Shown here: positions 14,014 through 46,580 of the stretch, one piece after another
Layout of the letters: every line of letters starts with the position of its first letter
Numbering within the stretch: the stretch's first letter is position 1
Assembly (NCBI RefSeq): GCF_964204645.1
Contig: NC_134030.1
Coordinates: forward strand, 19,349,110 to 19,413,109
From: Tubulanus polymorphus
Taxonomy: Eukaryota; Nemertea; Palaeonemertea; Tubulaniformes; Tubulanidae
DNA: 64,000 bases
Direction of reading: 5' to 3'
Notes under the pieces: model-generated
What the model was told of the DNA's origin: nothing
Seen by the model: only the letters and a program-made list of their open reading frames with translations
Databases searched by the model: none
Made by a program: the position numbers and the translations under genes

Positions 14014-14250
14014 TTTAAAGCGGGTGGCGACAAATCCTAAGTTCTAATCAAACCACTAACACTATTTCTATATCAGCGGCTAGTCAACGTAGCCCTAAGA
14101 AACCGTTTAAAAATGATAAAACCGTCGATCTATATACATATTTCACTAAAATAAAGTCGATGGATGCTCGATCAAAATGCCTTATTCAACGCTGAACGGA
14201 TTGAATGAATTCAAAGACAATTGCGAAGATCACAAGCCATAGAAGTAGGC

Positions 14251-14547
14251 CTAACAGTGGAACTCACAATTCAAATAAAGCTGCAGGTTGCACAACTTTG
14301 ACAGAGAGACAGAACAGCTTTCAAAATGAATCGATTCAGAGCTTGGTAAATATTCGTCACCGATGAAGAAGATTTTTAAAAAATCTTCGCATTTTGAACG
14401 GGAACAGTTGTTTCTACATTTGCAGTTGCCACACAATGACTTCACACATAAACCCATGTTAGTTTTGTTCACGCCAAGATTTGCTAGTACAATAGATTCG
14501 TAGAGGCTCGTGTTAGTTTTGTTCATGTCTGAATAAATATTATTCAC
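14251..14547 (-). other. Conserved antisense ORF, unit 1
   Basis: Up to 98 codons with a cysteine-rich core (LCVKSLCGNCKCRNNCSRSK), just upstream of the glycine-rich gene promoter and on the opposite strand. The core is kept in all units, but after it the frame differs between units 1/5 and 2-4. I therefore do not call it a gene; it may be an exon or a relic. Function unknown. Confidence 0.3.
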
Positions 14548-14591
14548 TTCGTAACATGTTTAAAATATTTAGATTTCTGAGGGAAAGATGT

Positions 14592-14641
14592 AGTGTCGCA
14601 GTGTGGAGAAACAGTGACGTTTTACAAGCTACAAATTGAAG
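14592..14641 (+). promoter_or_regulatory. Non-coding first exon of glycine-rich gene, unit 1
   Basis: By comparison with units 2-4, transcription should start about 30 bp past the A/T-rich TTTAAAATA (near 14560). The leader exon ends ATTGAAG at 14641, followed by GTAAGT. Here the TATAAAATA of units 2-4 reads TTTAAAATA. Confidence 0.5.
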
Positions 14642-14986
14642 GTAAGTGCATCGACTATAGGAGTTAGTTTCATCGTGGACAGTTCCAAAGATTTTGGGTC
14701 AGTGTAAAAGGACTGCGTCAGTTGCATAGACTGCCAGTCAGTTACATAATATTAAGAGTCAGTTAGAGTCAGTATCACAGACGAGAAGTCCGTTCCATGG
14801 GGACTAGGTGCCGGATTAACAGACAACGAGGCATTTTCAGAGACTAACGGCCGGTTTTATTGACTCTATAATTCAGTTTCATAGACTACAGGGCCAGTTT
14901 CATAGACCGTTCCAATTTGTCACGTAATTCAAAAACAGAAATATTACATCTATCTCTTTCTTCAGACCGACAGTTTGTGTGTAAAG

Positions 14987-16912
<1,926 letters not shown>

Positions 16913-17204
16913 ACACATCATTTCAACAAAATTGGAGCTGCTAAAACTGGAAGTCAAACAAAATTGAGCTCGACAATTCGAAAAAAAATTATCGTTTGCA
17001 ATACGAATTGAGAAATAAATAATCATATAGTTAGAAATAAACATTTTGTTTGATCAATATTTAAAAGGCTTCAGTTGAGATGCAGAGATCTTAGATGAGG
17101 AACACGAATCAAAACGAGTTTGTAGTTTCTCAGCGTGTGTCTGCAACCTTCGAGGTCGCATAATTCTAGTTATTCAGCAAAACAATCACGACTGGTCTTG
17201 GCTT

Positions 17205-17352
17205 TTTTACAGTACTTCCAAAAGACGAGATAGAATGACATAATTTCAGATTTTTCTGCACAGAGTTCCAGAGTTTTGGGCCTTTGTGGATTATTGTAAA
17301 TTTCCTATAATTATGCTTTGCGAAAGTTACATCTAATTCCTTACATCGACGT
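17205..17352 (+). mobile_element. Internal LINE fragment replacing GPCR sequence, unit 1
   Basis: This stretch is nearly identical to 18098-18250 in the same unit (the 3' part of the LINE ORF) and replaces about 340 bp of GPCR-side sequence present in units 2-5. It has neither a LINE 3' tail nor a target duplication, so it did not arrive by ordinary retrotransposition. Confidence 0.85.
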
Positions 17353-17620
17353 GAAAGAATGCGAATTAGATTCGAAGAACGCTATTCGTTTGACTGTAGC
17401 CGTTTCAGTTATATTGTTGGTATTCGAACTGCCCAGTTCGTTTCAAAGCTATAAAAGATTTATCGGACTTTTCGTCGATTTGCCGAAAATACCGTATCAC
17501 GGAGCGACGAAAAGTATGGAGAGATTTTCGTCGAGTTATTTCCGATTGCCGACTCGTCGGCGAACTTTGTTATTTATTGTTTGGTGCATGATCGGTTTAG
17601 ACATACGGCAAAAACATTGA
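17353..17620 (+). pseudogene. GPCR TM6-TM7 fragment, unit 1
   Basis: Encodes the TM6 segment (NAIRLTVAVSVILLVFELP) and the start of the third extracellular loop. One T is missing in GAGATTTTCG relative to unit 5, so TM7 is out of frame. The upstream TM5 part is lost, replaced by the LINE fragment at 17205. Confidence 0.75.
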
Positions 17621-17797
17621 TAAATATAGTATGCACAGGAGTGCCATAGGTTCGAATACATACAGGCGCTAGTCATTACTGAGAAATAGTTGACCGTGTG
17701 AATAACATATTAAAAAGAGAGAAATAGGAAATGATTAAATAGACATATTCTATATACTCTATGGTATAATATGCACCTGCCGTCTGAAGTCAAAAAT

Positions 17798-18536
17798 ATG
17801 ATAATAATAATAATAATAATGATGATGTTTTATTTACGAATTAAATTACAATTTAAGGTAGTAGGAATTAGTACAAATTATTGTCAAATAGGACGTTGGA
17901 CGACAGTTGAAGTTAAAATTAACTTATTACCTGAGAGGCCTAGTCGCCCACACACTCACATTCACGCCCCATTCATACATACAAGTTACATGACAAAAAC
18001 ATTCAACATAGAAAATATGATAATTCCAGGATATTCAGTATATTAGATTGATCAATTAGAAGTACATAATTTCATCTAAACATATTGGGAAATGAGATAA
18101 TTTTTTACAGTATTTGCAAAAGACGAGATAGAATGACATAATTTCAGATTTTTCTGCACAGAGTTCCAGAGTTTTGGGCCTTTGTGGATTATTGTAAATT
18201 GCCTATAATTATGCTTTGCGAAAGTTACATCTAATTCCTTACATCGACGTGTATTGTGGTTGTGTTTAACTTTGTTTGTAAATAAATTATTGTATCGCTT
18301 AGGAAGTAGGTCATTTGTAGATTTAAACATGAAGTGTAGAACTTGTTGATTATTGATATCGAATATTGTGAGTTGTTTCGTAGATTTGAAGAATAGTCCT
18401 GAATGTTCTAGGTAATGTTTCTTATTTATTATGCGCATACCTTTTTCAGTAGGGTATAGAGATTGTTTATTCTTGAGGGGTAGCTGTTAGCCCAGACGAT
18501 ATTACAGTGTTGTATGTGAGGTAATGCTAATGATTG
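17798..18536 (-). mobile_element. Truncated CR1/L2-like LINE, unit 1
   Basis: Retains the 3' short-repeat tail (ATT/ATG repeats, minus strand) and the C-terminal ORF piece at 18076-18438 (LLPKRYNNLF, HNHNTR). The rest, including RT and endonuclease, is deleted up to the peptide gene intron, with the break at about 18536. Confidence 0.85.
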
Positions 18537-18821
18537 TCTCAACTTGATGGCAGTAAGAGACAGATACTATATCGTTTAGTAGAATCCACTTCATTCGGAT
18601 CATTTGGGACCAACAAAATTCATCTGGTTTACGCTAATTCTGGATTAAAGTCTAAATTTTCTGTAAAAAAGTGAACTGCAAATATTGTCCGGATAAGGCC
18701 AAAATCTGGATTGAATCGATCCGGCTTAAGCGGGTTTGATTGCATTTTATTAACTCTTGGTATTTAGCACTAATTCGGTGCTTACAAACCACGAATTCAT
18801 CGCACAACTATTCTATTACAG

Positions 18822-18870
18822 CTATTCTGATGATGAATCTAATTCTCCTGGCGTTCATAGACATCTCAAA
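18822..18870 (+). pseudogene. Orphan exon 2 of the cysteine-rich peptide gene, unit 1
   Basis: A 49-nt exon with TTACAG acceptor and AAAGTAAGT donor. It codes for the hydrophobic second half of the signal peptide (LMMNLILLAFIDIS). Exon 1 is deleted and exon 3 lies only beyond unit 5, so the gene cannot be made from this unit. Confidence 0.75.
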
Positions 18871-19215
18871 GTAAGTTACAACATCAGATATATCCTAATA
18901 GAATAATCACACTCAGACGTGGTGAATTGATTCTAAAGCAAAAACCCACTATGTTTTAATCAAAAGTTTTGTGTAAAGCGGGTGACGACAAATCCAAAAT
19001 TCTAATCAAACTACTAAAACAATTCTATATCAGCCACTTGTCCACGTAGCCATAAAAAACCGTTTAAAAATGATAAAACCGTCAATCTTTATTCATATTT
19101 CACTACAATGAAGTCGATGGATGCTCGATCGAAATGCCACGCTTAACGGAGAGAATAAATGCAAAGACAATTGCGAAGATCACAAACCATAGAAATAAAG
19201 GCCTAACAATGGAAG

Positions 19216-19497
19216 TCACAATTCAAATAAAGCTGCAGGTTGCAACTTTGACAGAGACAGAACGGCTTTCACAATGAATCGATTCAGAGCTTGGTAAATA
19301 TTCGTCGCCGATGAAGAAGATTTTAAAACAAAATCTACCCATTTTGAACGGGAACAGTTGTTTCTACATATGCAGTTGCCACACAATGACTTCACACATA
19401 AATCCATTTGAGTTTTGTTCACGCCAAGATTTGCTGGTACAATAGATTCGTAGAGGCTCGGGTTGGTTTTGTTCATGTCTGAATAAATATTATTCAC
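19216..19497 (-). other. Conserved antisense ORF, unit 2
   Basis: The Cys-rich core (LCVKSLCGNCICRNNCSRSK) is kept. The frame after DF differs from units 1 and 5 because GTTTTA replaces TTTTA, so the C-terminal part is not conserved as protein. Confidence 0.3.
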
Positions 19498-19508
19498 TAC
19501 GTAAAATG

Positions 19509-19591
19509 TATAAAATATTTAGATTTCTGAAGGGAAGATGTAGTGTCGCAGTGTGGAGAAACAGTGACGTTTTACAAGCTACAAATTGAAG
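19509..19591 (+). promoter_or_regulatory. TATA-box promoter and leader exon, unit 2
   Basis: TATAAAATA at 19509-19517; the expected start is near 19540. The non-coding leader exon ends ATTGAAG at 19591 before GTAAGTGC. It splices to the TTTCAG acceptor at 19902. Confidence 0.7.
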
Positions 19592-19923
19592 GTAAGTGCA
19601 TCGACTATAGGAGTTAGTTTCATCGTGGACAGCTCCAAAGATTTGGGGTCAGTGTAAAAGGACTGCGTCAGTTCCATAGACTGCCAGTCAGTTACATAAT
19701 ATTAAGAGTCAGTTTCACAGACGAGAAGTCCGTTCCATGGGGACTAGGTGCCGGATAAACAGACAACGAGGCAGTTTCAGAGACTAACGGCCGGTTTTAT
19801 TGACTCTAAAATTCAGTTTCATAGACTAAACGGCCAGTTTCATAGACCGTTCCAATATGTCACATAATTCAGAAACATAGATATTTCATCCATCTCTTTC
19901 AGACCGACAGTTTGTGTGTAAAG

Positions 19924-21693
<1,770 letters not shown>

Positions 21694-22017
21694 AAACATC
21701 ATATCAACAAAATAAGAGCTGCTAAAACTGGAAGTCAAACAAAATTTAGCTCGACAATTCGAAAAAAAATAATCGTTTGCAATATGAATTGAGAAATAAA
21801 TAGTCATATAGTTAGAAATTAACATTTTCTTAAATCAATATTGAGAAACGCTTCAGTTGAGATGCAGAGATTTTAAACGAGGAATACGAATCAAAACGAG
21901 TTTGTAGTTTTTCAGCGTGTACCTGCAACCTTCCAGGTCGCATAATTCTAGCTATTCAGCAAAACAATCACGACTGGTCTTGGTGTTGAGCTCATCATCG
22001 ATCCAAATCCTGATATC

Positions 22018-22571
22018 TACGTGTATATATCTAATATCCTGCAGTGGTCAAATTCCAGCTACTGGGCCCATTACCTCTTGAAATATACGGTATCTACACG
22101 TCTGTCCTTGTCTGCCTCTGATTTCCGGGTCTGTTCTGAGGCGTACACAAAAGTCGTGGATCTCCTTTTGAATTTGTTTTATATTTGGATCCGATGGCCT
22201 ACAGCGAATTACACGTATTTAGATCCGGCGATTATCGTTATTTGAATGTCTACATCGTCGGTAAAGTTCGCTAAATTTCGCGAAATCGGAAGAAAATGAC
22301 GGCGAAACAATGCGAATTAGATTCGAAGAACGCTATTCGTTTGACTGTAGCCGTTTCAGTTATATTGTTGGTATTCGAACTGCCCAGTTCGTTTCAAAGC
22401 TATAAAAGATTTATCGGACTTTTCGTCGATTTGCCGAAAATGCCGTATCACGGAGCGACGAAAAGTGTGGAGAGATTTTCGTCGAGTTATTTCCGATTGC
22501 CGACTCGTCGGCGAACTTTGTTATTTATTGTTTGGTGCATGATCGGTTTAGACATACGGCAAAAACATTGA
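22018..22571 (+). pseudogene. GPCR fragment (TM5-TM7), unit 2
   Basis: Reads through a second-loop-like stretch (RWPTANYTYLDPA) to TM5 (IIVI), then a frameshift and stop codons, then TM6 (RLTVAVSVILLVFELPSSF) in the frame of an ATG at 22296. A missing T before TCGTCGAG shifts TM7 out of frame. No TM1-TM3 is visible upstream. The class A (rhodopsin-like) assignment rests on the ELP-type TM6 and the TM7 seen in unit 5. It is a decayed fragment, not a working gene. Confidence 0.75.
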
Positions 22572-22746
22572 TAAATATAGTATGCACAGGAGTGCCATAG
22601 GTTCGAATACATACAGGCGCTAGTCATTACTGAGAAATAGTTGACCGTGTGAATAACATATTAAAAAGATAGAAATAGGAAATGATTAAATAGACATATT
22701 CTATATACTGTATGGTATAATATGCACCTGCCGTCTGAAGTCAAAA

Positions 22747-22748
<2 letters not shown>

Positions 22749-22778
<30 letters not shown>

Positions 22779-25700
22779 TTTTATTTACGAATTAAATTAC
22801 AATTTAAATTAGTAGGAATTAGTACAAAATATTGTCAAATAGGACGTTGGACGACAGTTGAAGTTAAAATTAACTTATTACCTGAGAGGCCTAGTCGCCC
22901 ACACACTCACATTCACGCCCCATTCATACATACAAGTTACATGACAAAAACATTCAACATAGAAAATATGATAATTCCAGGATATTCAGTATATTAGATT
23001 GATCAATTAGAAGTACATAATTTCATCTAAACATATTGGGAAATGAGATAATTTTTTACAGTATTTGCAAAAGACGAGATAGAATGACATAATTTCAGAT
23101 TTTTCTGCACAGAGTTCCAGAGTTTTGGGCCTTTGTGGATTATTGTAAATTGCCTATAATCATGCTTTGCGAAAGTTACATCTAATTCCTTACATCGACG
23201 TGTATTGTGGTTGTGTTTAACTTTGTTTGTAAATAAATTATTGTATCGCTTAGGAAGTAGGTCATTTATAGATTTAAACATGAAGTGTAGAACTTGTTGA
23301 TTATTGATATCGAATATTGTGACTTGTTTCGTAGATTTGAAGAATGGTCCTGAATGTTCTAGGTAATGTTTCTTATTTCTTATGCGCATACCTTTTTCAG
23401 TAGGGTATAGAGATTATTTAGTCTTGAGGGGTAGCTGTTAGCCCAGACGATATTACAGTATTGTATGTGAGGTAATGCTAATGATTGATATATTGTTTTT
23501 AAGGTGTAATTAGGAAGTTTATGTTTTAGTATGCTAAGGATAAAAAGTATTCTGCGAAATTTAATTTCAACTTGATGTATGTGGTGTTCCCATGTGATTT
23601 TGTCGTCAATTATAACGCCTAAAAATTTGGCCGCTGTCACCTTTTTTATTGTTTCATCATCAATGTTTAGTTTAATGGTCTTCGTTATTTTGATTCTTCC
23701 CGAAAATAATAAAAGGTTGGTCTTATCGATATTCAGAGATAGTCTATTTGCGGAGAGCCACTTGCTTACTAATTTTAATTCATAGTTCATTTCGGTTTCG
23801 AGGGTTTTGGGACATCTATTACTGTGCATTAAACTTGTGTCGTCTGCAAAAAGGATGAAGTCTAGGATTTTCGATGATTCTGTGATATCATTGATATATA
23901 TCAAAAATAAAAGTGGCCCTAGGATTGATCCTTGTGGTATTCCCGTTTTAATGGCTTTGAAATCCGATAATGCTGAGTTTATGTTAGTTAATTGATATCT
24001 ATCTGTTAGATAATTCCTAAACCATGCATTTGTGATACCTCTGATCCCATAATGATTTCATTTAAACAATAAAATCGAATGATCTATTGTATCAAAGGCC
24101 TTTTTAAGATCAAGTAGAATAAGCGCTGTAATTTTTCCATCTTCCAGGTTTTTAGTGATTTTGTCTAGTAATGTTATCAATGCTAAATCTGTAGAATACT
24201 TTTTTCGAAGGCAAAATTGTTTGTCGGAGAGAATCGCATCACAGAAGTTTGAGAGTCGATTATGAGTTTTTCTAGAATTTTGGAAATAGAGGGGAGAATT
24301 GAGATAGGACGATAATTTCTTGCTTCGCATGTGTCACCTGATTTAAAGATAGGTACAACTCTCGCCGTTTTGAGTTTACTAGGAACAGCTCCACAATTGA
24401 ATGACCTGTTGAAAATATGGCATTAAGGGTCTACGATTTCTGGTATAACATATCAAATAATTTTCATGGGTATACCATCTGTGCCAGCAGTGTTTGAGCT
24501 TTTGAGTGTTCGTACTAAATCAATAATTTCTGTCTCGACTACTGGAAATAGATAAAAGCTTGATGGGTTTTGATTAGGTAAAAAGTGTCGAAAATTTTCG
24601 TTGCTGTTGATGCTGTTAGCAAGTTTGGGACCAACATTAACAAAATAATTATTGAATTCGTTGGCGATATCTTGTTCTTTGATTATAGATCTAGAATTGT
24701 TTTTTAGTTCCGTAATTATTGTAGATTTTCCCTTGGAGCCAATGATATTGTTTATGATTTTCCAAGTGTTTTTCATATTGTTCTTCTGTTTTAAGAGATT
24801 TTGCTGGTAGTAGTTTTTCTCCGCCGTTTTAAATATATTATTGAGTTTATTTTTGTAATTTAGATATTTATTCTTATCCCTTTCGGATTTGCTTTTTAAG
24901 AATATCTTATATAATCTTTGTTTAGTAGAAATTGATTTTAAGAGACGACCGACCGTAAGCCAGGGATTATGGGGTTTACTACTGTTGACTGTGAATTTTT
25001 TCAGTGGAAAGCTAGATTCAAATAATCCGATGAAAATGTCAAGGAATACGTTATAATCGGTTTCGCAATCGTCTTCATCCAGGACGCTAGTCCAATCTGA
25101 CGCGACTAGATTATTTTTAAAGTAAGCCATATTATTTTCGTTAATCGAACGATTAGTTATTTCATATTTTGTATTCTTCATTTTAGTTGGTATTAGCGTA
25201 AAGATAGGTAGATGGTTGGAGATATCTGAAATGATCACCCCTGAAGTGTTGTTGTTGGAGAGAGAATTTGTGTAGATATTGTCGATCAGAGTAGCTGTAT
25301 AGTCAGTTATTCTTGTAGGTACATGGATGAGAGGTTTAAATCCTGTAGATATGACTTCGTTTAGAAATTTTGAGATTTGGTGGCAAAGATCACTCTTTAA
25401 TAGATTTATGTTATGATCTCCCAGTAAATAGCACTCGGTTTTGCTCTTTTCAATAAGTTGGAGTATTCTCTCAAATTCGGTATTAAAATTATCAATCTTT
25501 GTCCCTGGAGGTCTATATATCGTACCCAGTATGATATTCTTATTTTTACAGGATAATTCGATAAATAAACATTCTAATACATGCGTATCATCGGAGATTA
25601 GATCCGATCGTAATTTGAAATTTACATCTTTTTTAATATAAAAACCGACACCACCACCGACAGAGTAATCTCTGCTTAAAAATACGTTATTATACGCATG

Positions 25701-26067
25701 GTGGTTGTACAAGGTGTCATTATTATTTTCAGGTTTCGTCCAAGTCTCAGAAACCGCTATTATCGTAGGATATGAATTCAGGGAATCTAGTAAATAAGAG
25801 ATTTTATCGAAATTAGCTGTTAAGCTTCTACAGTTAATGTGTACTAGACTTAAGGGAGACGAGCAGTTTAAAAGAGAGTTGACAGTTTCTACATCGTAGT
25901 ATTTGCACGGATTATCATCCGTTATAAATTCATCTATTGAATTAGGCATTTATTTGTAGTTAGTTAACAATGAATTCAATTAACAATTACGATGGATTGA
26001 GATTCAATTTTTAGTTTTCTTTTCACTCGGCTTATCGGCAGAAGTTGTAGTCTCTGATAGTGACCTT
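22749..26067 (-). mobile_element. CR1/L2-like non-LTR retrotransposon, most complete copy (unit 2)
   Basis: About 3.3 kb, minus strand, ending in an (ATT)n-type tail at 22749. The ORF at 25949-24453 starts with an APE-type endonuclease (HINCRSL, SETWTKP, GTIYRPPG, GDHNIN) and runs into the start of RT (GTDGIP). The endonuclease motif usually written SDH reads SNH here. RT then continues in broken frames: DLKKAFDTIDH at 24330-24058, FADDTSLM at 23904-23380, and the C-terminal HNHNTR piece at 23389-23027. Frameshifts and stops make it non-functional. It lies between GPCR sequence and the peptide gene promoter. Confidence 0.92.
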
Positions 26068-26253
26068 CTTCTGGTGCCGCTAAATATTCAGTTAGATCGA
26101 TTGCAGCACCTAACGTGGCGATAGAGAAATTAATCATCGATCTTTTGTTAGATGTCTATTTAAACTATAGCGCGGAAATGTATATTGTCTTAGATCAACT
26201 CGACAATTCAATCAGTATCGAACGACGGAAGAGAAAATCATCAATTTCAACAT

Positions 26254-26815
26254 ATGAAGCTCGCTTGTGGTAAGTTTCTAAATTGATCTATGAATCAGTT
26301 TTCTAAACACTTACAGAAAAGCAGACGCAGTTTAGGTGTATCGTGTATCACAAACTCTCACTCAGTATTTGACACCAAGTCGGGGTATAATTTCACCCGC
26401 TCCAACTTTACCACAAAAAGAGACAAAGTCTACTGTAATTCACAACTTCTCAATCTTGACAAAAAACTCGGGTAAAATTTGCCTCAACTTGATGGCAGTA
26501 AGAGACAGATACTATATCGTTTAGTAGAATCCACTTCATTCGGATCATTTGGGACCAACAAAATTCATCTGGTTTACGCTTATTCTGGATTAAAGTCTAA
26601 ATTTTCTGTATAAAAGTAAACTGCAAATATTGTCCGGATTAGGCCAAAATCTGGATTGAATCGATCCGGCTTAAGCGGGTTTGATTGCATTTTATTAACT
26701 CTTGGTATTTAGCACTAATTCGGTGCTTACAAACCACGAATTCATCGCACAACTATTCTATTACAGCTATTCTGATGATGAATCTAATTCTCCTGGCGTT
26801 CATAGACATCTCAAA
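26254..26815 (+). pseudogene. Orphan exons 1-2 of the peptide gene, unit 2
   Basis: Exon 1 (26254-26269, MKLAC, then GTAAGT) and exon 2 (26767-26815) have intact splice sites and phases. The upstream region keeps TATTTAAAC about 90 bp before the ATG. Exon 3, which codes for the whole mature peptide, is absent because the unit junction falls in intron 2. Confidence 0.78.
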
Positions 26816-27442: not shown

Positions 27443-27453
27443 TACGTAAAATG

Positions 27454-33910: not shown

Positions 33911-34478
33911 ATGAACCTCGCTTGTGGTAAGTTTCTAAATTGATCTATGAATCAGTTTTCTAAACACTTACAGAAAAGCAGACGCAGTTTAGGTGTATCG
34001 TGTATCACAAACTCTCACTCAGTATTTGACACCAAGTCGGGGTATAATTTCACCCGCTCCAACTTTACCACAAAAAGAGACAAAGTCTACTGTAATTCAC
34101 AACTTCTCAATCTTGACAAAAACTCAGGTAAAATTTGTCTCAACTTGATGGCAGTAAGAGACAGATACTATATCGTTTAGTAGAATCCACTTCATTCGGA
34201 TCATTTGGGACCAACAAAATTCATCTGGTTTACGCTAATTCTGGATTAAAGTCTAAATTTTCTGTAAAAAAGTGAACTGCAAATATTGTCCGGATTAGGC
34301 CAAAATCTGGATTGAACTGATCCGGCTTAAGCGGGTTTGACTGTATTTTATTAACTCTTGGTATTTAGCACTAATTCGGTGCTTACAAACCACGTATTCA
34401 TTGCATCTAAATACAACTATTCTATTACAGCTATTCTCATGATGAATATATTCTCCTGGCGTTCATAGACATCTCAAA
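33911..34478 (+). pseudogene. Orphan exons 1-2 of the peptide gene, damaged, unit 3
   Basis: Exon 1 at 33911-33926 (MNLAC). Exon 2 at 34431-34478 has lost one base (AATATATTC for AATCTAATTC), giving a frameshift and an early TAG. About 115 bp of promoter, including the TATTTAAA, is deleted upstream. Exon 3 is absent as in the other inner units. Confidence 0.78.
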
Positions 34479-34823
34479 GTAAGTTACAACATCAGATATA
34501 TCCTAATAGAATAATCGCACTCAGACGTGGTGAATGGATTCTAAAGCAAAAACCCACTATGTTTTAATCAAAAGTTTTGTGTAAAGCGGGTGACGACAAA
34601 TCCAAAATTCTAATCAAACTACTAAAACAATTCTATATCAGCCACTTGTCCACGTAGCCATAAAAAACCGTTTAAAAATGATAAAACCGTCAATCTTTAT
34701 TCATATTTCACTACAATGAAGTCGATGGATGCTCGATCGAAATGCCACGCTTAACGGAGAGAATAAATGCAAAGACAATTGCGAAGATCACAAACCATAG
34801 AAATAAAGGCCTAACAATGGAAG

Positions 34824-35105
34824 TCACAATTCAAATAAAGCTGCAGGTTGCAACTTTGACAGAGACAGAACGGCTTTCACAATGAATCGATTCAGAGCTT
34901 GGTAAATATTCGTCGCCGATGAAGAAGATTTTAAAACAAAATCTACCCATTTTGAACGGGAACAGTTGTTTCTACATATGCAGTTGCCACACAATGACTT
35001 CACACATAAATCCATTTGAGTTTTGCTCACGCCAAGATTTGCTGGTACAATAGATTCGTAGAGGCTCGGGTTGGTTTTGTTCATGTCTGAATAAATATTA
35101 TTCAC
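34824..35105 (-). other. Conserved antisense ORF, unit 4
   Basis: One amino-acid change (VSKT for VNKT) from units 2 and 3 in an otherwise identical frame. Confidence 0.3.
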
Positions 35106-35116
35106 TACGTAAAATG

Positions 35117-35199
35117 TATAAAATATTTAGATTTCTGAAGGGAAGATGTAGTGTCGCAGTGTGGAGAAACAGTGACGTTTTACAAGCTACAAATTGAAG
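35117..35199 (+). promoter_or_regulatory. TATA-box promoter and leader exon, unit 4
   Basis: TATAAAATA at 35117-35125; the leader exon ends at 35199 before GTAAGT. Confidence 0.7.
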
Positions 35200-35531
35200 G
35201 TAAGTGCATCGACTATAGGAGTTAGTTTCATCGTTGACAGCTCCAAAGATTTGGGGTCAGTGTAAAAGGACTGCGTCAGTTCCATAGACTGCCAGTCAGT
35301 TACATAATATAAAGAGTCAGTTTCACAGACGAGAAGTCCGTTCCATGGGGACTAGGTGCCGGATAAACAGACAACGAGGCAGTTTCAGAGACTAACGGCC
35401 GGTTTTATTGACTCTAAAATTCAGTTTCATAGACTAAACGGCCAGTTTCATAGACCGTTCCAATATGTCACATAATTCAGAAACATAGATATTTCATCCA
35501 TCTCTTTCAGACCGACAGTTTGTGTGTAAAG

Positions 35532-36940
35532 ATGAAGTTGTTTTGTTTGATGGTCTTGTCGTCTGTCGTGTGCGGCGTTGCACTCGCGGATGAAAGATAC
35601 AGTAAACGATATTATCCGGGTAGTTATCACCCCGGTAGCTGTGGCGTATCCAGAGAGAAGGTAAATCTTTTTCCTGCATACAATTTGATTGTCTTCACGA
35701 CTGAGTTGGGGATTTCGTTTCTGGCCATGTTGACGATTGTGTTATTCAGTTCCAATAAAGCGGTGATGAACACAAACCGTGTAGGCGACTCAGGGAGCAT
35801 CTCAAAACTTCTATAGTTCCGTCAATTGGAATAACCGTCTAATTGGTTTTAAATTCCCACCGGTTTGAATAGACACATGCCAGAGTTGGAACATATTGAT
35901 TTTCTAATGAGATACCACAGACAAAGATAAGACGAGTGTATCTAACGAGTGTATTTCGATCATAACTTTTAATTGAAAATAGATTAGCAAAATTACAAGT
36001 GAAAACCTATTAAACTCTAATAGACTTTATAAACTAAGTCAAATATAGCTAAAATGCCAAAAGCATCTAAAAGAGAGACGTTAAATCAACTACGTGTAAT
36101 ATATATATATATACCACCCCCTTCCGCGATTTTTTCTAATTGAAATAACTATCGAAATGTTGAGATGCTCCCTTAGATATTTTTGAAAAAGATTTTGAAT
36201 TAGACTAGTGACTAGGCTAATGGGTTCAATGGTCCAAGGCCCAATAGTAGGCAATTATTATTTTGGCCCTAGGCAAATCTATATTTACAAACTCTGGTTG
36301 ATCTTTTTGGTTCATATGGAGACTATTGGTTTTTTGTTCAATGAATACCACAAATCTAACACTTTTATCGATTAATATTCATGTTGTACTTGCACATTCT
36401 CAAAAAAACACAAAACAATCCTCAATTGCCGCAGCAGATCACACAATCGTCATTCTCCTATTGCATTATTGTTTCATTCATTTTTAGCATATAATCAAAA
36501 GGGAAGCAGGAATGCTATGGAGTCGCGTCATTGATAAATTCCTAGAGGTTTTATCCTGCGACGATGGGTTAATTCTGCAGGACATCGGTCACGCTCTACG
36601 CGATATCTTGCACCAGGATAGATTCGACATGAAATTATGCAAGGTTTTCACGCATTATTTTAGAGATCCAAATGTGATTAAACACATTCCTCAGATGCTA
36701 AAGAATGGTGTGCATGAGCTGGAAAAAGAATATGAAAAGTTAAAGGAGAGTGAAAGGGGCAACAAGAATCAAGAAGGCACCGGGAAGCAAGGAGGTTCTG
36801 AGGAACTAGGAGGCACCGGGGTCCTTGGCGGGAACGGGGCCGCAGGAGGTAACGGAGGTCTAGGAGGCATCAGGTTCGGGGCCGCAGGAGGTGACGGGGG
36901 TCTAGGAGGCACAGGAGCCAGTGGTGGAGCAGTGCCATAG
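35532..36940 (+). CDS. Secreted glycine-rich repeat protein, unit 4
   Basis: Coding exons 35532-35660 and 36488-36940 (acceptors at 35510 and 36487) give about 193 residues. The mature start is DERYSKRYYPG, as in unit 1. Exon two begins HIIKREAGMLWSRVIDKF and has DDG where units 2 and 3 have ADE, so this copy has diverged at several residues while staying open. The Gly tail has one GGSEEL block and GGNGAAGG. The first intron is shortened by loss of most of the TA array. Confidence 0.82.
35793..36172. mobile_element. GGGAGCATC MITE, internally deleted, unit 4
   Basis: Both termini are present. The TA run is only about 14 bp (36099-36113) and the adjoining ATCGATAGTTCGG block is gone. Confidence 0.8.
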
Positions 36941-37264
36941 AAACATCATATCAACAAAATAAGAGCTGCTAAAACTGGAAGTCAAACAAAATTTAGCTCG
37001 ACAATTCGAAAAAAAATAATCGTTTGCAATATGAATTGAGAAATAAATAGTCATATAGTTAGAAATTAACATTTTCTTAAATCAATATTGAGAAACGCTT
37101 CAGTTGAGATGCAGAGATTTTAAACGAGGAATACGAATCAAAACGAGTTTGTAGTTTTTCAGCGTGTACCTGCAACCTTCCAGGTCGCATAATTCTAGCT
37201 ATTCAGCAAAACAATCACGACTGGTCTTGGTGTTGAGCTCATCATCGATCCAAATCCTGATATC

Positions 37265-37818
37265 TACGTGTATATATCTAATATCCTGCAGTGGTCAAAT
37301 TCCAGCTACTGGGCCCATTACCTCTTGAAATATACGGTATCTACACGTCTGTCCTTGTCTGCCTCTGATTTCCGGGTCTGTTCTGAGGCGTACACAAAAG
37401 TCGTGGATCTCCTTTTGAATTTGTTTTATATTTGGATCCGATGGCCTACAGCGAATTACACGTATTTAGATCCGGCGATTATCGTTATTTGAATGTCTAC
37501 ATCGTCGGTAAAGTTCGCTAAATTTCGCGAAATCGGAAGAAAATGACGGCGAAACAATGCGAATTAGATTCGAAGAACGCTATTCGTTTGACTGTAGCCG
37601 TTTCAGTTATATTGTTGGTATTCGAACTGCCCAGTTCGTTTCAAAGCTATAAAAGATTTATCGGACTTTTCGTCGATTTGCCGAAAATGCCGTATCACGG
37701 AGCGACGAAAAGTGTGGAGAGATTTTCGTCGAGTTATTTCCGATTGCCGACTCGTCGGCGAACTTTGTTATTTATTGTTTGGTGCATGATCGGTTTAGAC
37801 ATACGGCAAAAACATTGA
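37265..37818 (+). pseudogene. GPCR fragment (TM5-TM7), unit 4
   Basis: Identical in translation to unit 2 over the TM6 frame (37543-37818), with the same disabling changes. Confidence 0.75.
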
Positions 37819-37993
37819 TAAATATAGTATGCACAGGAGTGCCATAGGTTCGAATACATACAGGCGCTAGTCATTACTGAGAAATAGTTGACCGTGTGAA
37901 TAACATATTAAAAAGATAGAAATAGGAAATGATTAAATAGACATATTCTATATACTGTATGGTATAATATGCACCTGCCGTCTGAAGTCAAAA

Positions 37994-37995
<2 letters not shown>

Positions 37996-38025
<30 letters not shown>

Positions 38026-39972
38026 TTTTATTTACGAATTAAATTACAATTTAAATTAGTAGGAATTAGTACAAAATATTGTCAAATAGGACGTTGGACG
38101 ACAGTTGAAGTTAAAATTAACTTATTACCTGAGAGGCCTAGTCGCCCACACACTCACATTCACGCCCCATTCATACATACAAGTTACATGACAAAAACAT
38201 TCAACATAGAAAATATGATAATTCCAGGATATTCAGTATATTAGATTGATCAATTAGAAGTACATAATTTCATCTAAACATATTGGGAAATGAGATAATT
38301 TTTTACAGTATTTGCAAAAGACGAGATAGAATGACATAATTTCAGATTTTTCTGCACAGAGTTCCAGAGTTTTGGGCCTTTGTGGATTATTGTAAATTGC
38401 CTATAATCATGCTTTGCGAAAGTTACATCTAATTCCTTACATCGACGTGTATTGTGGTTGTGTTTAACTTTGTTTGTAAATAAATTATTGTATCGCTTAG
38501 GAAGTAGGTCATTTATAGATTTAAACATGAAGTGTAGAACTTGTTGATTATTGATATCGAATATTGTGACTTGTTTCGTAGATTTGAAGAATGGTCCTGA
38601 ATGTTCTAGGTAATGTTTCTTATTTCTTATGCGCATACCTTTTTCAGTAGGGTATAGAGATTATTTAGTCTTGAGGGGTAGCTGTTAGCCCAGACGATAT
38701 TACAGTATTGTATGTGAGGTAATGCTAATGATTGATATATTGTTTTTAAGGTGTAATTAGGAAGTTTATGTTTTAGTATGCTAAGGATAAAAAGTATTCT
38801 GCGAAATTTAATTTCAACTTGATGTATGTGGTGTTCCCATGTGATTTTGTCGTCAATTATAACGCCTAAAAATTTGGCCGCTGTCACCTTTTTTATTGTT
38901 TCATCATCAATGTTTAGTTTAATGGTCTTCGTTATTTTGATTCTTCCCGAAAATAATAAAAGGTTGGTCTTATCGATATTCAGAGATAGTCTATTTGCGG
39001 AGAGCCACTTGCTTACTAATTTTAATTCATAGTTCATTTCGGTTTCGAGGGTTTTGGGACATCTATTACTGTGCATTAAACTTGTGTCGTCTGCAAAAAG
39101 GATGAAGTCTAGGATTTTCGATGATTCTGTGATATCATTGATATATATCAAAAATAAAAGTGGCCCTAGGATTGATCCTTGTGGTATTCCCGTTTTAATG
39201 GCTTTGAAATCCGATAATGCTGAGTTTATGTTAGTTAATTGATATCTATCTGTTAGATAATTCCTAAACCATGCATTTGTGATACCTCTGATCCCATAAT
39301 GATTTCATTTAAACAATAAAATCGAATGATCTATTGTATCAAAGGCCTTTTTAAGATCAAGTAGAATAAGCGCTGTAATTTTTCCATCTTCCAGGTTTTT
39401 AGTGATTTTGTCTAGTAATGTTATCAATGCTAAATCTGTAGAATACTTTTTTCGAAGGCAAAATTGTTTGTCGGAGAGAATCGCATCACAGAAGTTTGAG
39501 AGTCGATTATGAGTTTTTCTAGAATTTTGGAAATAGAGGGGAGAATTGAGATAGGACGATAATTTTTTGCTTCGCATGTGTCACCTGATTTAAAGATAGG
39601 TACAACTCTCGCCGTTTTGAGTTTACTAGGAACAGCTCCACAATTGAATGACCTGTTGAAAATATGGCATTAAGGGTCTACGATTTCTGGTATAACATAT
39701 TTGATAATTTTCATGGGTATACCATCTGTGCCAGCAGTGTTTGTACTAGACTTAAGGGAGACGAGCAGTTTAAAAGAGAGTTGACAGTTTCTACATCGTA
39801 GTATTTGCACGGATTATCATCCGTTATAAATTCATCTATTGAATTAGGCATTTATTTGTAGTTAGTTAACAATGAATTCAATTAACAATTACGATGGATT
39901 GAGATTCAATTTTTAGTTTTCTTTTCACTCGGCTTATCGGCAGAAGTTGTAGTCTCTGATAGTGACCTTCTT
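37996..39972 (-). mobile_element. CR1/L2-like LINE with internal deletion, unit 4
   Basis: The 3' tail, the C-terminal piece, the FADD block (39151-38627) and the DLKKAFD block (39577-39305) are present. At about 39742 the RT start (GCAGTGTTTG) joins directly to the endonuclease start (TACTAGACTTAAG), removing about 1.3 kb. Confidence 0.9.
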
Positions 39973-40155
39973 CTGGTGCCGCTAAATATTCAGTTAGATC
40001 GATTGCAGCACCTAACGTGGCGATAGAGAAATTAATCATCGATCTTTTGTTAGATGTCTATTTAAACTATAGCGCGGAAATGTATATTGTCTTAGATCAA
40101 CTCGACAATTCAATCAGTATCGAACGACGGAAGAGAAAATCATCAATTTCAACAA

Positions 40156-40717
40156 ATGAAGCTCGCTTGTGGTAAGTTTCTAAATTGATCTATGAATCAG
40201 TTTTCTAAACACTTACAGAAAAGCAGACGCAGTTTAGGTGTATCGTGTATCACAAACTCTCACTCAGTATTTGACACCAAGTCGGGGTATAATTTCACCC
40301 GCTCCAACTTTACCACAAAAAGAGACAAAGTCTACTGTAATTCACAACTTCTCAATCTTGACAAAAAACTCGGGTAAAATTTGCCTCAACTTGATGGCAG
40401 TAAGAGACAGATACTATATCGTTTAGTAGAATCCACTTCATTCGGATCATTTGGGACCAACAAAATTCATCTGGTTTACGCTAATTCTGGATTAAAGTCT
40501 AAATTTTCTGTATAAAAGTAAACTGCAAATATTGTCCGGATTAGGCCAAAATCTGGATTGAATCGATCCGGCTTAAGCGGGTTTGATTGCATTTTATTAA
40601 CTCTTGGTATTTAGCACTAATTCGGTGCTTACAAACCACGAATTCATCGCACAACTATTCTATTACAGCTATTCTGATGATGAATCTAATTCTCCTGGCG
40701 TTCATAGACATCTCAAA
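40156..40717 (+). pseudogene. Orphan exons 1-2 of the peptide gene, unit 4
   Basis: Exon 1 (40156-40171) and exon 2 (40669-40717) are intact with good splice sites, and the TATTTAAAC promoter is kept. Exon 3 is missing. Confidence 0.78.
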
Positions 40718-41069
40718 GTAAGTTACAACATCAGATATATCCTAATAGAATAATCACACTCAGACGTGGTGAATGGATTCTAAAGCAAAAACCCACTATG
40801 TTTTAATCAAAAGTTTTGTGTAAAGCGGGTGACGACAAATCCAAAATTCTAATCAAACTACTAAAACAATTCTATATCAGCCACTTGTCCACGTAGCCAT
40901 AAAAAACCGTTTAAAAATGATAAAACCGTCAATCTTTATTCATATTTCACTACAATGAAGTCGATGTATGCTCGATCGAAATGCCACGCTTAACGGATAG
41001 AATAAATGCAAAGACAATTGCGAAGATCACAAACTATAGAAATAAAAGCCTAACAATGGAAGTCACAAT

Positions 41070-41252
41070 TCAAATAAAGCTGCAGGTTGCAACTTTGACA
41101 GAGACAGAACAGCTTTCAAAATGAATCGATTCAGAGCTTGGTAAATATTCGTCCCCGATGAAGAAGATTTTTAAAAAATCTACCCATTTTGAACGGGAAC
41201 AGTTGTTTCTACATTTGCAGTTGCCACACAATGACTTCTCACATAAATTCAT
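41070..41252 (-). other. Conserved antisense ORF, unit 5
   Basis: The Cys-rich core is kept but the start differs (GTTAGTTTTTTTTCAC), so the upstream frame is broken here. Confidence 0.25.
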
Positions 41253-41387
41253 GTTAGTTTTTTTTCACGCCAAGATTTGCTAGTACAATAGATTCATAGA
41301 GGTTCGTGTTGGTTTTGTTCACGTCTGAATAAATATCATTCACTACGTAAAATGTTTAAAATATTTAGATTTCTGAAGGGAATATGT

Positions 41388-41438
41388 AGTGTCGCAGTGT
41401 GGAGAAACAGTGACGTTTTACAAGCTACAAAATAGAAG
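41388..41438 (+). promoter_or_regulatory. Non-coding first exon of glycine-rich gene, unit 5
   Basis: The leader exon ends AATAGAAG at 41438, followed by GTAAGTGC. The TATA position reads TTTAAAATA (near 41355), as in unit 1. Confidence 0.5.
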
Positions 41439-41841
41439 GTAAGTGCATCGACTATAGGAGTTAGTTTCATCGTGGACTCTGCGAACAGTTTTCAGAATTT
41501 GCGATTCCAAGGATCATGGATCAGTTTTAGAAGGCGACGAGTCACAGTTCCAAAGATTTGGGGTCAGTGTAAAAGGACTGCGTCAGTTCCATAGACTGCC
41601 AGTCAGTTACATAGTATTAAGAGTCAGTTTCACAGACGAGAAGTCCGTTCCATGGGGACTAGGTGCCGGATAAACAGACAACGAGGCAGTTTCAATGACT
41701 AACGGCCGGTTTTATTGACTCTAAAATTCAGTTTCATAGACTACAGGGCCAGTTTCATAAACCGTTTCAATATGTCACATATTAATTCAGAAACATAGAT
41801 ATTTCATCTATCTCTTTCAGACCGAAGGTTTGTGTGTAAAG

Positions 41842-43849
<2,008 letters not shown>

Positions 43850-44222
43850 TGGGGGTCTAGGAGGCACAGGAGCCAGTGGAGGAGCAGTGCCGCCATAGAA
43901 ACATCATTTCAACAAAATTAGAGCTACTAAAACTGGAAGTCAAACAAAATTGAGCTCGACAATTCGAAAAAAAATTTTCGTTTGCAATACGAATTGAGAA
44001 ATAAATAATCATATAGTTAGAAATTAACATTTTCTTAAATCAATATTGAGAAACGCTTCAGTTGAGATGCAGAGATTTTAAACGAGGAATACGAATCGAA
44101 ACGAGTTTGTAGTTTTTCAGCGTGTACCTGCAACCTTCCAGGTCGCATAATTCTAGCTATTCAGCAAAACAATCACGACTGGTCTTGGTGTTGAGCTCAT
44201 CATCGATCCAAATCCTGATATC

Positions 44223-44821
44223 TACGTGTATATATCTAATATCCTGCAGTGGTCAAATTCCAGCTACTGGGCCCATTACCTCTTGAAATATACGGTATCT
44301 ACACGTCTGTCCTCGTCTACCTCTGATTTCCGGGTCTGTTCTGAGGCGTACACAAAAGGCGTGGATCTCCTTTTGAATTTGTTTTATATTTGGATCCAAT
44401 GGCCTACAGCGTATTTGGATCCGGCGATTAGAAAAGTTCTACCGTTCACGATTATCGTTATTTGAATGTCTACATCGTCGGTAAAGTTCGCTAAATTTCG
44501 CGAAATCAGAAGATAATGACGGCGAAAGAATGCGAATTAGATTCGATGAACGCTATTCGTTTGACTGTAGCCGTTTCAGTTATATTGTTGGTATTCGAAC
44601 TGCCCAGTTCGTTTCAAAGCTATAAAAGATTTATCGGACTTTTCGTCGATTTGCCGAAAATACCGTATCACGGAGCGACGAAAAATATAGAGAGATTTTT
44701 CGTCGAGTTATTTCCGATTGCCGACTCGTCGGCGAACTTTGTTATTTATTGTTTGGTGCATGATCGGTTTAGACATACGGCAAAAACATTGATAAATATA
44801 GTATGCACAAGAGAACCATAG
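44223..44821 (+). pseudogene. GPCR fragment with in-frame TM6-TM7, unit 5
   Basis: The frame from ATG 44516 to 44821 encodes TM6 (IRLTVAVSVILLVFELP), a loop (FVDLPKIPYHGATK) and TM7 with helix-8 start (PIADSSANFVIYCLVHDRFR). The NFVIYCL and FR pattern is typical of class A peptide-type GPCRs of invertebrates. Upstream, 44226-44465 reads toward TM5 (RKVLPFTIIVI), but a missing base and a TAA separate it from the TM6 frame. TM1-TM3 are not visible. The fragment is best read as the least decayed relic of a receptor gene duplicated with the array; less likely, it is a spliced exon pair of a gene I cannot reconstruct. Confidence 0.75.
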
Positions 44822-45074
44822 GTTCGAATTCATACTGGTGCTAGTCAATACTTAGAAATAGTTGATCATTTTAATGTGAATAACATATGAAATAGATAGA
44901 AATAGGAATTGATTAGATAGACATATTCTACAACTCTATGGTATAATATGCACCTGCCGTCTGAAGTCAAAAATATTCAGCTTCGGGCGACGCTAGATAT
45001 TCAGTTAGATCGATTGCCGCACCTGTCATAACGTGGCGATAGAGAAATTAATAATCGATCTTTTGTTAGATATC

Positions 45075-45115
45075 TATTTAAACTATAGTGCGGAAATATA
45101 TATTGTCTGAGATCA
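45075..45115 (+). promoter_or_regulatory. Core promoter of peptide gene P1
   Basis: TATTTAAAC at 45075-45083, with the expected start about 30 bp on, near GATCAACTCGAC. The same block is found in units 2 and 4 and, altered, upstream of P2 and P3. Confidence 0.55.
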
Positions 45116-45169
45116 ACTCGACAATTCAATCAGTATCGAACGACAGAAGAGAAAACCATCAATTTCAAC

Positions 45170-46580
45170 ATGAAGATCGCTTGCGGTAAGTTTCTAACTC
45201 TCCGATGAATATTTCAACACCGAAAGCAGAATCTACTGTATTTCAAAAACTCTTCCTCAGTATTTGACACCAACTCGGTTTAGAATTGTGGTTAGTTTCT
45301 GAATTTTTCTATGAATCAGTTTTCTAAAAACTTACAGAAAAGCAGACGCAGTTTAGGTGTATCGTGTATCACAAACTCTCACTAAGTATTTGACACCAAG
45401 TCGGAGTATAATTTCACCCGCTCCAACTTTACCACAAAAAGAGACAAAGTCTACTGTAATTCACAACTTCTCTATCTTGACAAAAAGACTCGGGTAAAAT
45501 TTGTCTCAACTTGATGGCAGTAAAAAGCAGATACTATTGTACAGTAGAATCCACTTAATTCGGATCATTTGGGACCAACAAAATTCATCTGGTTTACGCT
45601 AATTCTGGATTAAAGTCTAAATGTTCTGTATAATAGTGAACTGCAAATATTGTCCGGATTAGGTCAAAATCTGGATTGAATCGATCCGGCTTAAGCGGGT
45701 TTGACTGCATTTTATTAACTCTTGGTATTTAGCACTAATTCGGTGCTTACAAACCACGTATTCATCGCACAACTATTCTATTACAGCTATTCTGACGATG
45801 AATCTAATTCTCCTGGCGTTCATAGACATCTCAAAGTAAGTTACAACATCAGATATATCCTAATAGAATAATTACAATCAGACGTGGTGAATGGATTCTA
45901 AAGCAAAAACCCACTACGTTTTAATCAAAAGTTTTTTTTAAAAATCGAAAATTTATTACATCAAAAAACAAACTAAAAGAACTCACGACGTTTCGATCTC
46001 AACCTAGAGATCATCGTCAGGTGTGAGATCGAAACAGGTCGTGTTCGTTTAATTCTTTGATTAATATATTCTCGAATTTTAAATTGACTTTTAATTTGTA
46101 CATAGTGACTGGGTATTGTCAGATATATCTAATTCGAGAAAGGGTAAAACGCAAAAAGGGCTAGCTACCCCGTGGGCCATTAAGGTATGAACCGATGCAC
46201 AATGTTAGAAACTGCTGTTTAGCTACTCGTCGCACCATCGAGAAATAAAGCAAAATACATTGATTGATTATTGACCCTGATTTGCCATAAGTTTTTAATG
46301 AAGTTCTTTTCGTTACGCGTAACCCTTTCGAAAACTGAAATATTCGCGTCTCGGGGAGTTTAGCCATGTATCACACTGTTTCAGGATCGCTTGTAACGCT
46401 GATGATTGTCTGTATGTTCCTGAACATGAATGCATCAAAGCTGAGAGGAAATGTCAGCTTGGGCAATACTGCTGCACTAGTCATAATAATGTAAATCCGG
46501 AAGGTGAAACAATGGTAAAATCATGCCCATGCTCAGAAGCCCATTCCTATTATTGCCCTCCAAGGAAACCCGGCAAGTGA
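45170..46580 (+). CDS. Cysteine-rich secreted peptide P1, three exons, intact
   Basis: Exons 45170-45185, 45787-45835 and 46385-46580, all GT-AG and in phase, give about 86 residues. Exons 1-2 encode the signal peptide (MKIAC plus LTMNLILLAFIDIS). Exon 3 encodes the whole mature part: nine Cys spaced C-x4-C-x7-C-x6-C-x5-CC-x16-C-x-C-x7-C, ending RKPGK before TGA. The paired CC and even spacing suggest a disulfide-stabilised fold. I do not recognise the family and assign no activity. Exons 1-2 lie in the last array unit and exon 3 just outside it. Two paralogues (P2, P3) follow. The short split signal exon is shared by all copies. Confidence 0.85.
45936..46384. other. Peptide gene intron 2 with dispersed repeat
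   Basis: Contains a hairpin-forming block (AACTCACGACGTTTCGATCT and AGATCGAAACAGGTCGTG) that recurs in intron 2 of P3 (about 55150-55200) and P2 (about 51090-51120). It shows that the three genes arose by segmental duplication including introns. Confidence 0.6.

What the first reader, a model, noticed from the sequence alone, without database searches (positions are those of the whole stretch)
14014..45935. Five-unit mosaic tandem array of a secreted glycine-rich gene, a GPCR fragment and a peptide-gene 5' end
Five units of 5-8 kb repeat in the same order and orientation. Units 2 and 3 are nearly identical, so expansion is recent. Units 1 and 5 at the edges share features that 2-4 lack (nested TTAA element, TTTAAAATA, long Gly repeat), while unit 1's right half resembles 2-4. 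This suggests an edge type and a centre type with recombination between them. All five glycine-rich genes stay open while the other cargo decays, which points to selection on that gene.
Basis: partly seen in the sequence, partly recalled or inferred. Interest (0 to 1): 0.85.

Follow-up and report, generated by a model that had tools for sequence, protein, structure and literature searches.

The report
Mosaic gene array in ribbon worm
A ribbon worm carries five back-to-back copies of a gene for a secreted glycine-rich protein that we found nowhere else; the copies have swapped pieces of DNA, yet the part coding for the mature protein stays unusually different between some of them, which hints that variety in the protein may be useful.

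Summary
The array is real: five same-strand units (14016-45942) with one shared internal junction, so one founding duplication was later expanded. The genome is that of the palaeonemertean Tubulanus polymorphus: NCBI model LOC141907536 equals unit 1's gene letter for letter. Each unit holds a two-exon orphan gene (signal-peptide exon, phase-0 intron, exon with a Cys-containing domain and Gly-rich tail), a broken 3' piece of an Srw-like GPCR, and the 5' end of a Cys-rich peptide gene, cut because the duplication breakpoint lies in that gene's intron 2. The 'antisense ORF' is a dispersed non-LTR retrotransposon.

Other blocks group the copies differently: a patchwork of three lineages (u1, u2-4, u5). 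Exon 2 is a divergence peak in several comparisons (units 2 and 4: 14 of 285 sites there, 21 of 5958 elsewhere), but not between units 1 and 5. Synonymous sites are raised too, so older exon-2 versions seem to sit in homogenised flanks. Diversifying selection is suggested (omega about 1.8), not established. 'All five stay open' is nearly right: unit 5's C-terminus is frameshifted.

The parts
14016..18973 (+). Unit 1 (4958 bp). Exon-2 block nearest unit 5; right part (from ~17350) nearest units 2-4
18974..26918 (+). Unit 2 (7945 bp)
26919..34581 (+). Unit 3 (7663 bp), 0.43% substitutions from unit 2; own indels; conversion-like tract near its right end
34582..40820 (+). Unit 4 (6239 bp), 35 substitutions from unit 2, 14 of them in the exon-2 N-domain
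40821..45942 (+). Unit 5 (5122 bp), runs on into the complete Cys-rich peptide gene
14987..15103 (+). Unit 1 gly-rich gene exon 1 (signal peptide and KR site; 12 nt shorter than in the other units)
   Evidence: residues 1-39 of P0001/LOC141907536
16334..16912 (+). Unit 1 gly-rich gene exon 2 (N-domain plus Gly-rich tail)
19924..20052 (+). Unit 2 gly-rich gene exon 1
21241..21693 (+). Unit 2 gly-rich gene exon 2 (short-tail type)
27869..27997 (+). Unit 3 gly-rich gene exon 1
28996..29448 (+). Unit 3 gly-rich gene exon 2
35532..35660 (+). Unit 4 gly-rich gene exon 1
36488..36940 (+). Unit 4 gly-rich gene exon 2
41842..41970 (+). Unit 5 gly-rich gene exon 1
43208..43849 (+). Unit 5 gly-rich gene exon 2 (long tail; frame shifted near its end)
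44334..44809 (+). Unit 5 fragment of an Srw-like GPCR (about residues 206-365 of 373), split over two frames; homologous pieces at 17354-17637, 22165-22588, 29920-30343 and 37412-37835
23027..25949 (-). Non-LTR retrotransposon pieces in unit 2; relatives in unit 1 (3' end only), unit 3, and unit 4 (1345 bp missing)
42577..42913 (-). Retrotransposon piece inside unit 5 intron 1, beside a long (AT)n run
45170..45185 (+). Cys-rich peptide gene copy A, exon 1 (coding part); homologous sequence in units 2-4, absent from unit 1
45787..45835 (+). Cys-rich peptide gene copy A, exon 2 (rest of signal peptide); homologous sequence in units 1-4
46385..46580 (+). Cys-rich peptide gene copy A, exon 3 (mature peptide; 8 Cys at positions shared by copies A, B and C); lies outside the repeated unit

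Best explanation
One tandem duplication in Tubulanus polymorphus had its left break upstream of a secreted gly-rich gene and its right break in intron 2 of a neighbouring Cys-rich peptide gene. It gave a two-unit array that later grew to five by unequal exchange, most recently units 2-4. Conversion and exchange between units homogenised parts of the flanks and made a patchwork. Exon 2, which codes the mature domain and the Gly-rich tail, kept older, distinct versions. Shown: the array, the common junction, the mosaic, the peak at exon 2 in several comparisons. Inferred: the order of events, and that diversifying selection on a secreted (probably mucus or gland) protein preserves those versions. 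I put about 0.9 on the structural history, about 0.45 on selection at exon 2, and about 0.35 on a mucus/gland-secretion role.
For: Identical internal junctions. Blocked site patterns, p <= 2e-4. Exon-2 N-domain against the rest: u2-u4 14/285 v 21/5958, odds ratio 14.6, p 1.2e-10; u2-u5 46/285 v 36/1077 (5' flank plus exon 1) and 9/292 (3' flank); u1-u2 52/285 v 65/1063 and 26/291. Synonymous differences are raised as well: u2-u4 4 of ~55 v 21/5958, p 7e-5; u2-u5 7 or 8 of ~57 v 42/1290, p 0.004 or 0.0008. One-ratio omega 1.75 for the exon-2 N-domain and 1.84 with exon 1 added; two-class model 2dlnL 8.3 for exon 1 plus exon-2 N-domain. Amino-acid changes avoid residues shared with the C10 paralog in two of three comparisons (p 0.05, 0.01; the third 0.48). 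Conversion-like tract in unit 3: 9 of 13 differences from unit 2 match the inverted peptide-gene copy B, at 5 of them against all four other units. My gene models equal NCBI's for unit 1 and for the C10 paralog.
Against: Omega is not significantly above 1 for exon 2 alone: 2dlnL 2.7, or 2.0 without the indel block; exon 1 alone 1.1; two-class 4.2 and 3.1 for exon 2 with and without the block. The models assume one tree although blocks have different histories. There is no peak between units 1 and 5: 21/288 against 68/1063 and 23/291. Exon 2 is not the only cluster: units 2 and 3 peak at 26569-26854, in the peptide-gene piece (13 differences in 285; 0 of 2000 shuffles as high). Intron 1 is full of different inserts and the tail varies in length, so mismatch beside exon 2 could itself have blocked conversion. 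A raised local mutation rate was not excluded. Only unit 1's protein came back from the database search. Both AlphaFold models are low confidence, mean pLDDT 41 and 60.
Confidence: 0.6

Rival explanations
1. Neutral patchwork. Tandem units exchange DNA freely except where local mismatch (transposons, (AT)n runs, variable Gly repeat) blocks pairing. Exon 2 lies between two such mismatched stretches and so diverges without selection; some copies may be decaying.
For: Intron 1 carries different inserts in different units. The tail differs by several repeats. Synonymous sites are raised along with nonsynonymous ones. Omega is compatible with 1 for exon 2 alone. A cluster of differences also occurs in the truncated peptide-gene piece. 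Unit 5 has a late frameshift.
Against: Changes avoid residues shared with the distant C10 paralog in two of three comparisons. Splice sites, N-domain frame and its two cysteines are intact in all five units, while 83% of 5000 neutral simulations with 54 substitutions gained a stop. The right edge of the u2-u4 peak falls near the end of the N-domain: 14 of 285 there, 1 of 168 in the tail.
Confidence: 0.4
2. Part of the array is an assembly error: haplotypes or misjoined reads placed in tandem (most likely for units 2 and 3).
For: Units 2 and 3 differ by only 0.43% in substitutions, which could be within-species heterozygosity; long (AT)n runs and repeats are hard to assemble.
Against: Against unit 2, unit 3 lacks 189 and 107 bp and has 14 and 8 bp extra, and unit 4 lacks 329, 30 and 1345 bp (the 189 and 329 bp gaps start in an (AT)n run and are the least certain). 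The closest pairing switches along the unit: in the right-most part u2 is nearer u4, further left nearer u3. Units 1, 4 and 5 are clearly distinct.
Confidence: 0.08
3. The array is a dosage expansion: more copies give more of one secreted product, with no value in variety.
For: Units 2 and 3 encode the same exon 2 and an exon 1 with two amino-acid differences; the recent growth is of one type.
Against: Two exon-2 types about 16-18% different in the N-domain coexist, and only unit 1's protein came back from the database.
Confidence: 0.3

Closest known systems
Duplicated genes under gene conversion with a selection-maintained divergence peak (human red/green opsin exon 5; work of Teshima and Innan as described in the review PMC3924837, passages read)
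   Same: Low divergence in flanking non-coding DNA and a peak on one coding exon
   Different: In opsins the functional sites are known and other primates are compared; here there is no function, no other species, and intron inserts give a neutral alternative
Rodent Esp secreted pheromone genes (PMC3477143, abstract read)
   Same: Clustered small secreted proteins, gene conversion, conserved signal peptide, fast-evolving secreted part
   Different: No sequence comparison with Esp was made; Esp is a larger family with a proposed signalling role
Clustered spider dragline silk genes MaSp (PMC9779670, abstract read)
   Same: Clustered secreted repeat proteins with intergenic conversion and changing repeats
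   Different: Much smaller proteins here, with a Cys-containing N-domain; no Pfam match of any kind, so no silk domain seen
C10 paralog LOC141912209 of the same genome (P0002)
   Same: Two exons with a phase-0 intron, signal peptide, KR site, KFLEVxSC and KLCKVFT motifs, Gly-rich repeat tail
   Different: No tandem copy found; 36% identity over the N-domain; tail rich in Gly, Ser, Tyr and His instead of Gly, Ser, Glu and Asp

Membership tests
Tandem paralogs with conversion and a divergence peak (Innan type) | Tandem duplicates from one founding event | tested here: met
   identical junctions, self-BLAST
Tandem paralogs with conversion and a divergence peak (Innan type) | Evidence of exchange between copies | tested here: met
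   blocked site patterns; unit 3 tract matching copy B at 9 of 13 sites
Tandem paralogs with conversion and a divergence peak (Innan type) | Peak of divergence at the coding target, low flanks | tested here: met
   seen in u2-u4, u2-u5, u4-u5 and u1-u2; not seen in u1-u5, and u2-u3 peak elsewhere
Tandem paralogs with conversion and a divergence peak (Innan type) | Selection at the peak | tested here: inconclusive
   omega 1.7-1.8; 2dlnL from 2.0 to 8.3 depending on model and data
Tandem paralogs with conversion and a divergence peak (Innan type) | Versions maintained across species or alleles | not testable with these tools
   one genome only; no relatives held
Any Pfam-catalogued protein family | Match above the curated cut-off | tested here: not met
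   0 families for P0001 and P0002; no match above cut-off for the exon pieces of units 2 and 5
Srw-like / rhodopsin-type GPCR (for the GPCR piece) | Complete seven-transmembrane receptor frame | tested here: not met
   only about residues 206-365 of 373 remain, split over frames; unit 5's piece scores 21.3 bits to PF10324, cut-off 22.2; the full ORF of L020 scores 61.3
Non-LTR retrotransposon (for the antisense ORF) | Reverse transcriptase and endonuclease domains, dispersed copies | tested here: met
   RVT_1 54.4 bits, cut-off 29.6; Exo_endo_phos 21.9 bits, just under its cut-off of 24.5; 13 of 15 listed matches lie outside the array
Known nemertean toxin families | Sequence match to a described nemertean toxin | not tested

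The most novel reading that the evidence does not exclude
A Tubulanus-specific secreted protein family uses its second exon as a swappable cassette: conversion keeps the signal-peptide exon and the flanks alike while distinct mature-domain and tail versions are kept and moved between tandem units, so the array makes a standing set of different secreted proteins.
Probability: 0.22. Interest if true: 0.6.

Novelty: new member of a known kind. Interest (0 to 1): 0.42.

Why it matters
It is an orphan secreted gene family in a little-studied animal phylum, caught during expansion, with an exon-sized divergence peak inside partly homogenised flanks. If selection is confirmed, it gives a natural test of how tandem arrays keep variety in one exon under conversion. 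It also corrects the reading of the locus: one founding breakpoint explains the peptide-gene 5' ends repeated in the array.

Tried and rejected
Tried without result: homologues of the gly-rich gene outside Tubulanus (1 protein at E <= 1 among 3675 candidates; 1 at E <= 10 among 60 candidates; both Tubulanus polymorphus); a homologue of the Cys-rich peptide (no candidate shared enough words); solved structures related to the gly-rich family (two hits at E 0.48 and 0.94, not meaningful) or to the receptor (none at E <= 0.001). AlphaFold gave mostly helical, low-confidence models, so no fold search was run.

Papers: I did not find this array in print. The searches were 'Tubulanus polymorphus' with 'genome' (11 papers), 'nemertean' with 'glycine-rich' (5), 'LOC141907536' (0) and 'Nemertea', 'genome assembly', 'tandem duplications' (7). 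For these I saw listings only, plus matching passages of PMC8557429, PMC9415933 and PMC6410017. Three wider searches for similar patterns (20 of 78 listed; 12 of 27; 10 of 518) gave the comparisons; of those I read abstracts of PMC3477143 and PMC9779670 and passages of PMC3924837.

Rejected: an insect origin, my first guess, by the exact match to a Tubulanus protein; a chimeric transcript from peptide exon 2 to gly-rich exon 2, because the splice phases (2 and 0, read by eye) do not fit.

Weak points of my own tests: substitution scans and Fisher tests treat sites as independent, which conversion tracts break; the omega models, written by me in Python, use one tree for sequences of mixed history; the neutral stop simulation puts 54 changes on one sequence; low-identity rows (35-58%) are unrelated inserts aligned by force and are not used as divergence. 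In one search, columns with a gap, with disagreement among units 2-4, or in poorly aligned stretches were dropped before counting, as were 2 sites where all three lineages differ, leaving 224 informative sites. The printed alignment was cut off, so the state of unit 1 there rests.
Full report
WHAT IS THERE. Self-comparison of the window gives five direct units beginning at 14016, 18974, 26919, 34582 and 40821 and ending near 45942; their lengths are 4958, 7945, 7663, 6239 and 5122 bp. The bases around all four internal junctions are the same, so the simplest reading is descent from one duplication. The left break lies upstream of a secreted gene and the right break in intron 2 of a neighbouring peptide gene, whose exon 3 follows only unit 5. 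This explains why the earlier units carry only a 5' part of the peptide gene.

WHOSE GENOME. The window lies in a 267.8 Mb genome. The protein search with the array gene returned one protein, an uncharacterised protein of the ribbon worm Tubulanus polymorphus (LOC141907536). It is letter for letter unit 1's exon 1 plus exon 2. A second family member on C10 matches LOC141912209 over its whole length with my two-exon model. No other protein came back at E <= 1 (3675 candidates) or E <= 10 (60 candidates). In the same genome all 12 matches scored belong to the five units (10) and the C10 gene (2).

THE GENE. Exon 1 encodes a signal peptide (judged by eye) followed by a short stretch with a conserved dibasic KR; the intron is phase 0; exon 2 encodes a domain of about 95 residues with two invariant cysteines and then a Gly-rich tail. 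All five units keep the same donor and acceptor sequences. Units 1 and 5 have 5 and 6 GGSE[DE]LGG repeats, units 2-4 one each. Unit 5's frame shifts near its end, so its C-terminus differs; unit 1's signal peptide is four residues shorter. No Pfam family matches P0001 or P0002.

THE CARGO. The GPCR piece matches at most about residues 206-365 of a 373-aa open frame (L020) that scores to the Srw and 7tm_1 families; its matches are split over frames in every unit, least in unit 5. The receptor family is large in this genome: 150 matches were listed, 9 of them in the array, with 150 of 369 first-look candidates scored. The antisense ORF is a non-LTR retrotransposon with a reverse-transcriptase domain and an endonuclease-like region; of 15 matches to a 1301-base piece, 13 lie outside the array. 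It lies downstream of the GPCR piece in units 1-4, with only its 3' end left in unit 1 and 1345 bp missing in unit 4; unit 5 lacks it there but has a separate piece inside intron 1. Intron 1 also carries dispersed elements: one with 128 listed matches, flanked in unit 1 by 46-base inverted repeats, and a TTAA-type insert in units 1 and 5 with 41 listed matches.

MOSAIC HISTORY. I classed each informative site by which of three lineages (unit 1, units 2-4, unit 5) stands alone. Of 224 such sites (74 centre alone, 85 unit 1 alone, 65 unit 5 alone), the left end (14016 to about 14330) and a stretch near 16978-17180 set unit 1 apart; the stretch from about 14330 to 15146 is mixed; the block from about 15147 to 16875 mostly groups units 1 and 5 against the centre; and from about 17600 rightwards most sites set unit 5 apart. 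There are 93 switches along the unit, against a mean of 148 in 5000 shuffles (p <= 2e-4). Exchange is also visible at small scale: 9 of 13 differences of unit 3 from unit 2 near its right end match the inverted peptide-gene copy B, and at 5 of these all four other units agree against it.

THE EXON-2 PEAK. Units 2 and 4 differ at 14 of 285 sites in the exon-2 N-domain and at 21 of 5958 elsewhere (odds ratio 14.6, p 1.2e-10). At 6 of the 14, unit 4 has the state of units 1 and 5; at the other 8 it has a state of its own. Units 2 and 5 differ at 46 of 285 there, against 36 of 1077 in the 5' flank with exon 1 and 9 of 292 in the 3' flank; units 1 and 2 at 52 of 285 against 65 of 1063 and 26 of 291. 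Synonymous sites share the excess, so the exon-2 versions look older than their flanks, unless the local mutation rate is higher; selection on amino acids alone would not do that. Against a special role for exon 2: units 1 and 5 show no peak (21 of 288 against 68 of 1063 and 23 of 291), and units 2 and 3 have their own cluster in the peptide-gene piece (13 in 285).

SELECTION. Nei-Gojobori ratios between the exon-2 types are 1.4-1.8 and within types 0.6-0.9. A one-ratio model gives omega 1.75 for the exon-2 N-domain, not significantly above 1 (2dlnL 2.7), 1.68 without the indel block (2.0), and 1.84 with exon 1 added (3.7). Two-class models give 2dlnL 4.2, 3.1 and 8.3 for the same three data sets. 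Changes avoid residues shared with the C10 paralog in two of three comparisons (p 0.05, 0.48, 0.01). This suggests constraint at a core with diversification elsewhere, from effectively three lineages, and is not proof.

COMPARISON WITH WHAT IS KNOWN. The pattern works like duplicated genes under conversion whose differences at one exon are kept by selection; the example in the review I consulted is red and green opsin exon 5 (PMC3924837, passages read). Rodent Esp genes (PMC3477143, abstract) and clustered spider silk genes (PMC9779670, abstract) show conversion in secreted gene clusters. Papers on nemertean toxins were seen only by passages (PMC9415933; PMC6410017); the passages shown did not mention these genes.

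VERDICT. The structural history is well supported by sequence; whether selection preserves exon-2 versions, and what the secreted protein does, are open. My preferred function, a mucus or gland secretion protein, rests on the signal peptide, the Gly-rich tail and general knowledge of ribbon worms, with no expression data.

Noticed in passing
window 45170-46580 (+), 50576-52222 (-), 53933 to about 55750 (+): Three copies (A, B, C) of an orphan three-exon Cys-rich secreted peptide gene. The signal-peptide exons are alike and the mature exon much more variable (pairwise dN/dS 0.55-0.77); copy C has an altered exon-1 donor and exon 2.
   Followed up: partly
G000:C6:19806660-20145291: Seven further matches to the Cys-rich peptide exon lie 0.40-0.74 Mb downstream on the same chromosome; two pairs are exactly 232,300 bp apart, suggesting a segmental duplication.
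   Followed up: no
G000:C3:6508554, 6516895, 6525232: Three copies of the intron-1 dispersed element lie about 8.34 kb apart with nearly equal scores, suggesting another tandem array.
   Followed up: no
window 1407-1700 (-): An open frame with a signal-peptide-like start and many cysteines, no Pfam match.
   Followed up: no
genome-wide, e.g. L018-L024: A large family of apparently intronless Srw-like GPCR genes (many open frames of about 350-450 aa), with several clusters, for example on C3, C9 and C11.
   Followed up: no
window 62307-63683 (-): A FAST_1-domain gene in a GC-rich stretch (57% in 62001-64000, 33-43% in the other 2-kb steps).
   Followed up: no
window 34237-34517 (unit 3): A tract in unit 3 resembles the inverted peptide-gene copy B at 9 of 13 sites, as if converted from it.
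   Followed up: partly
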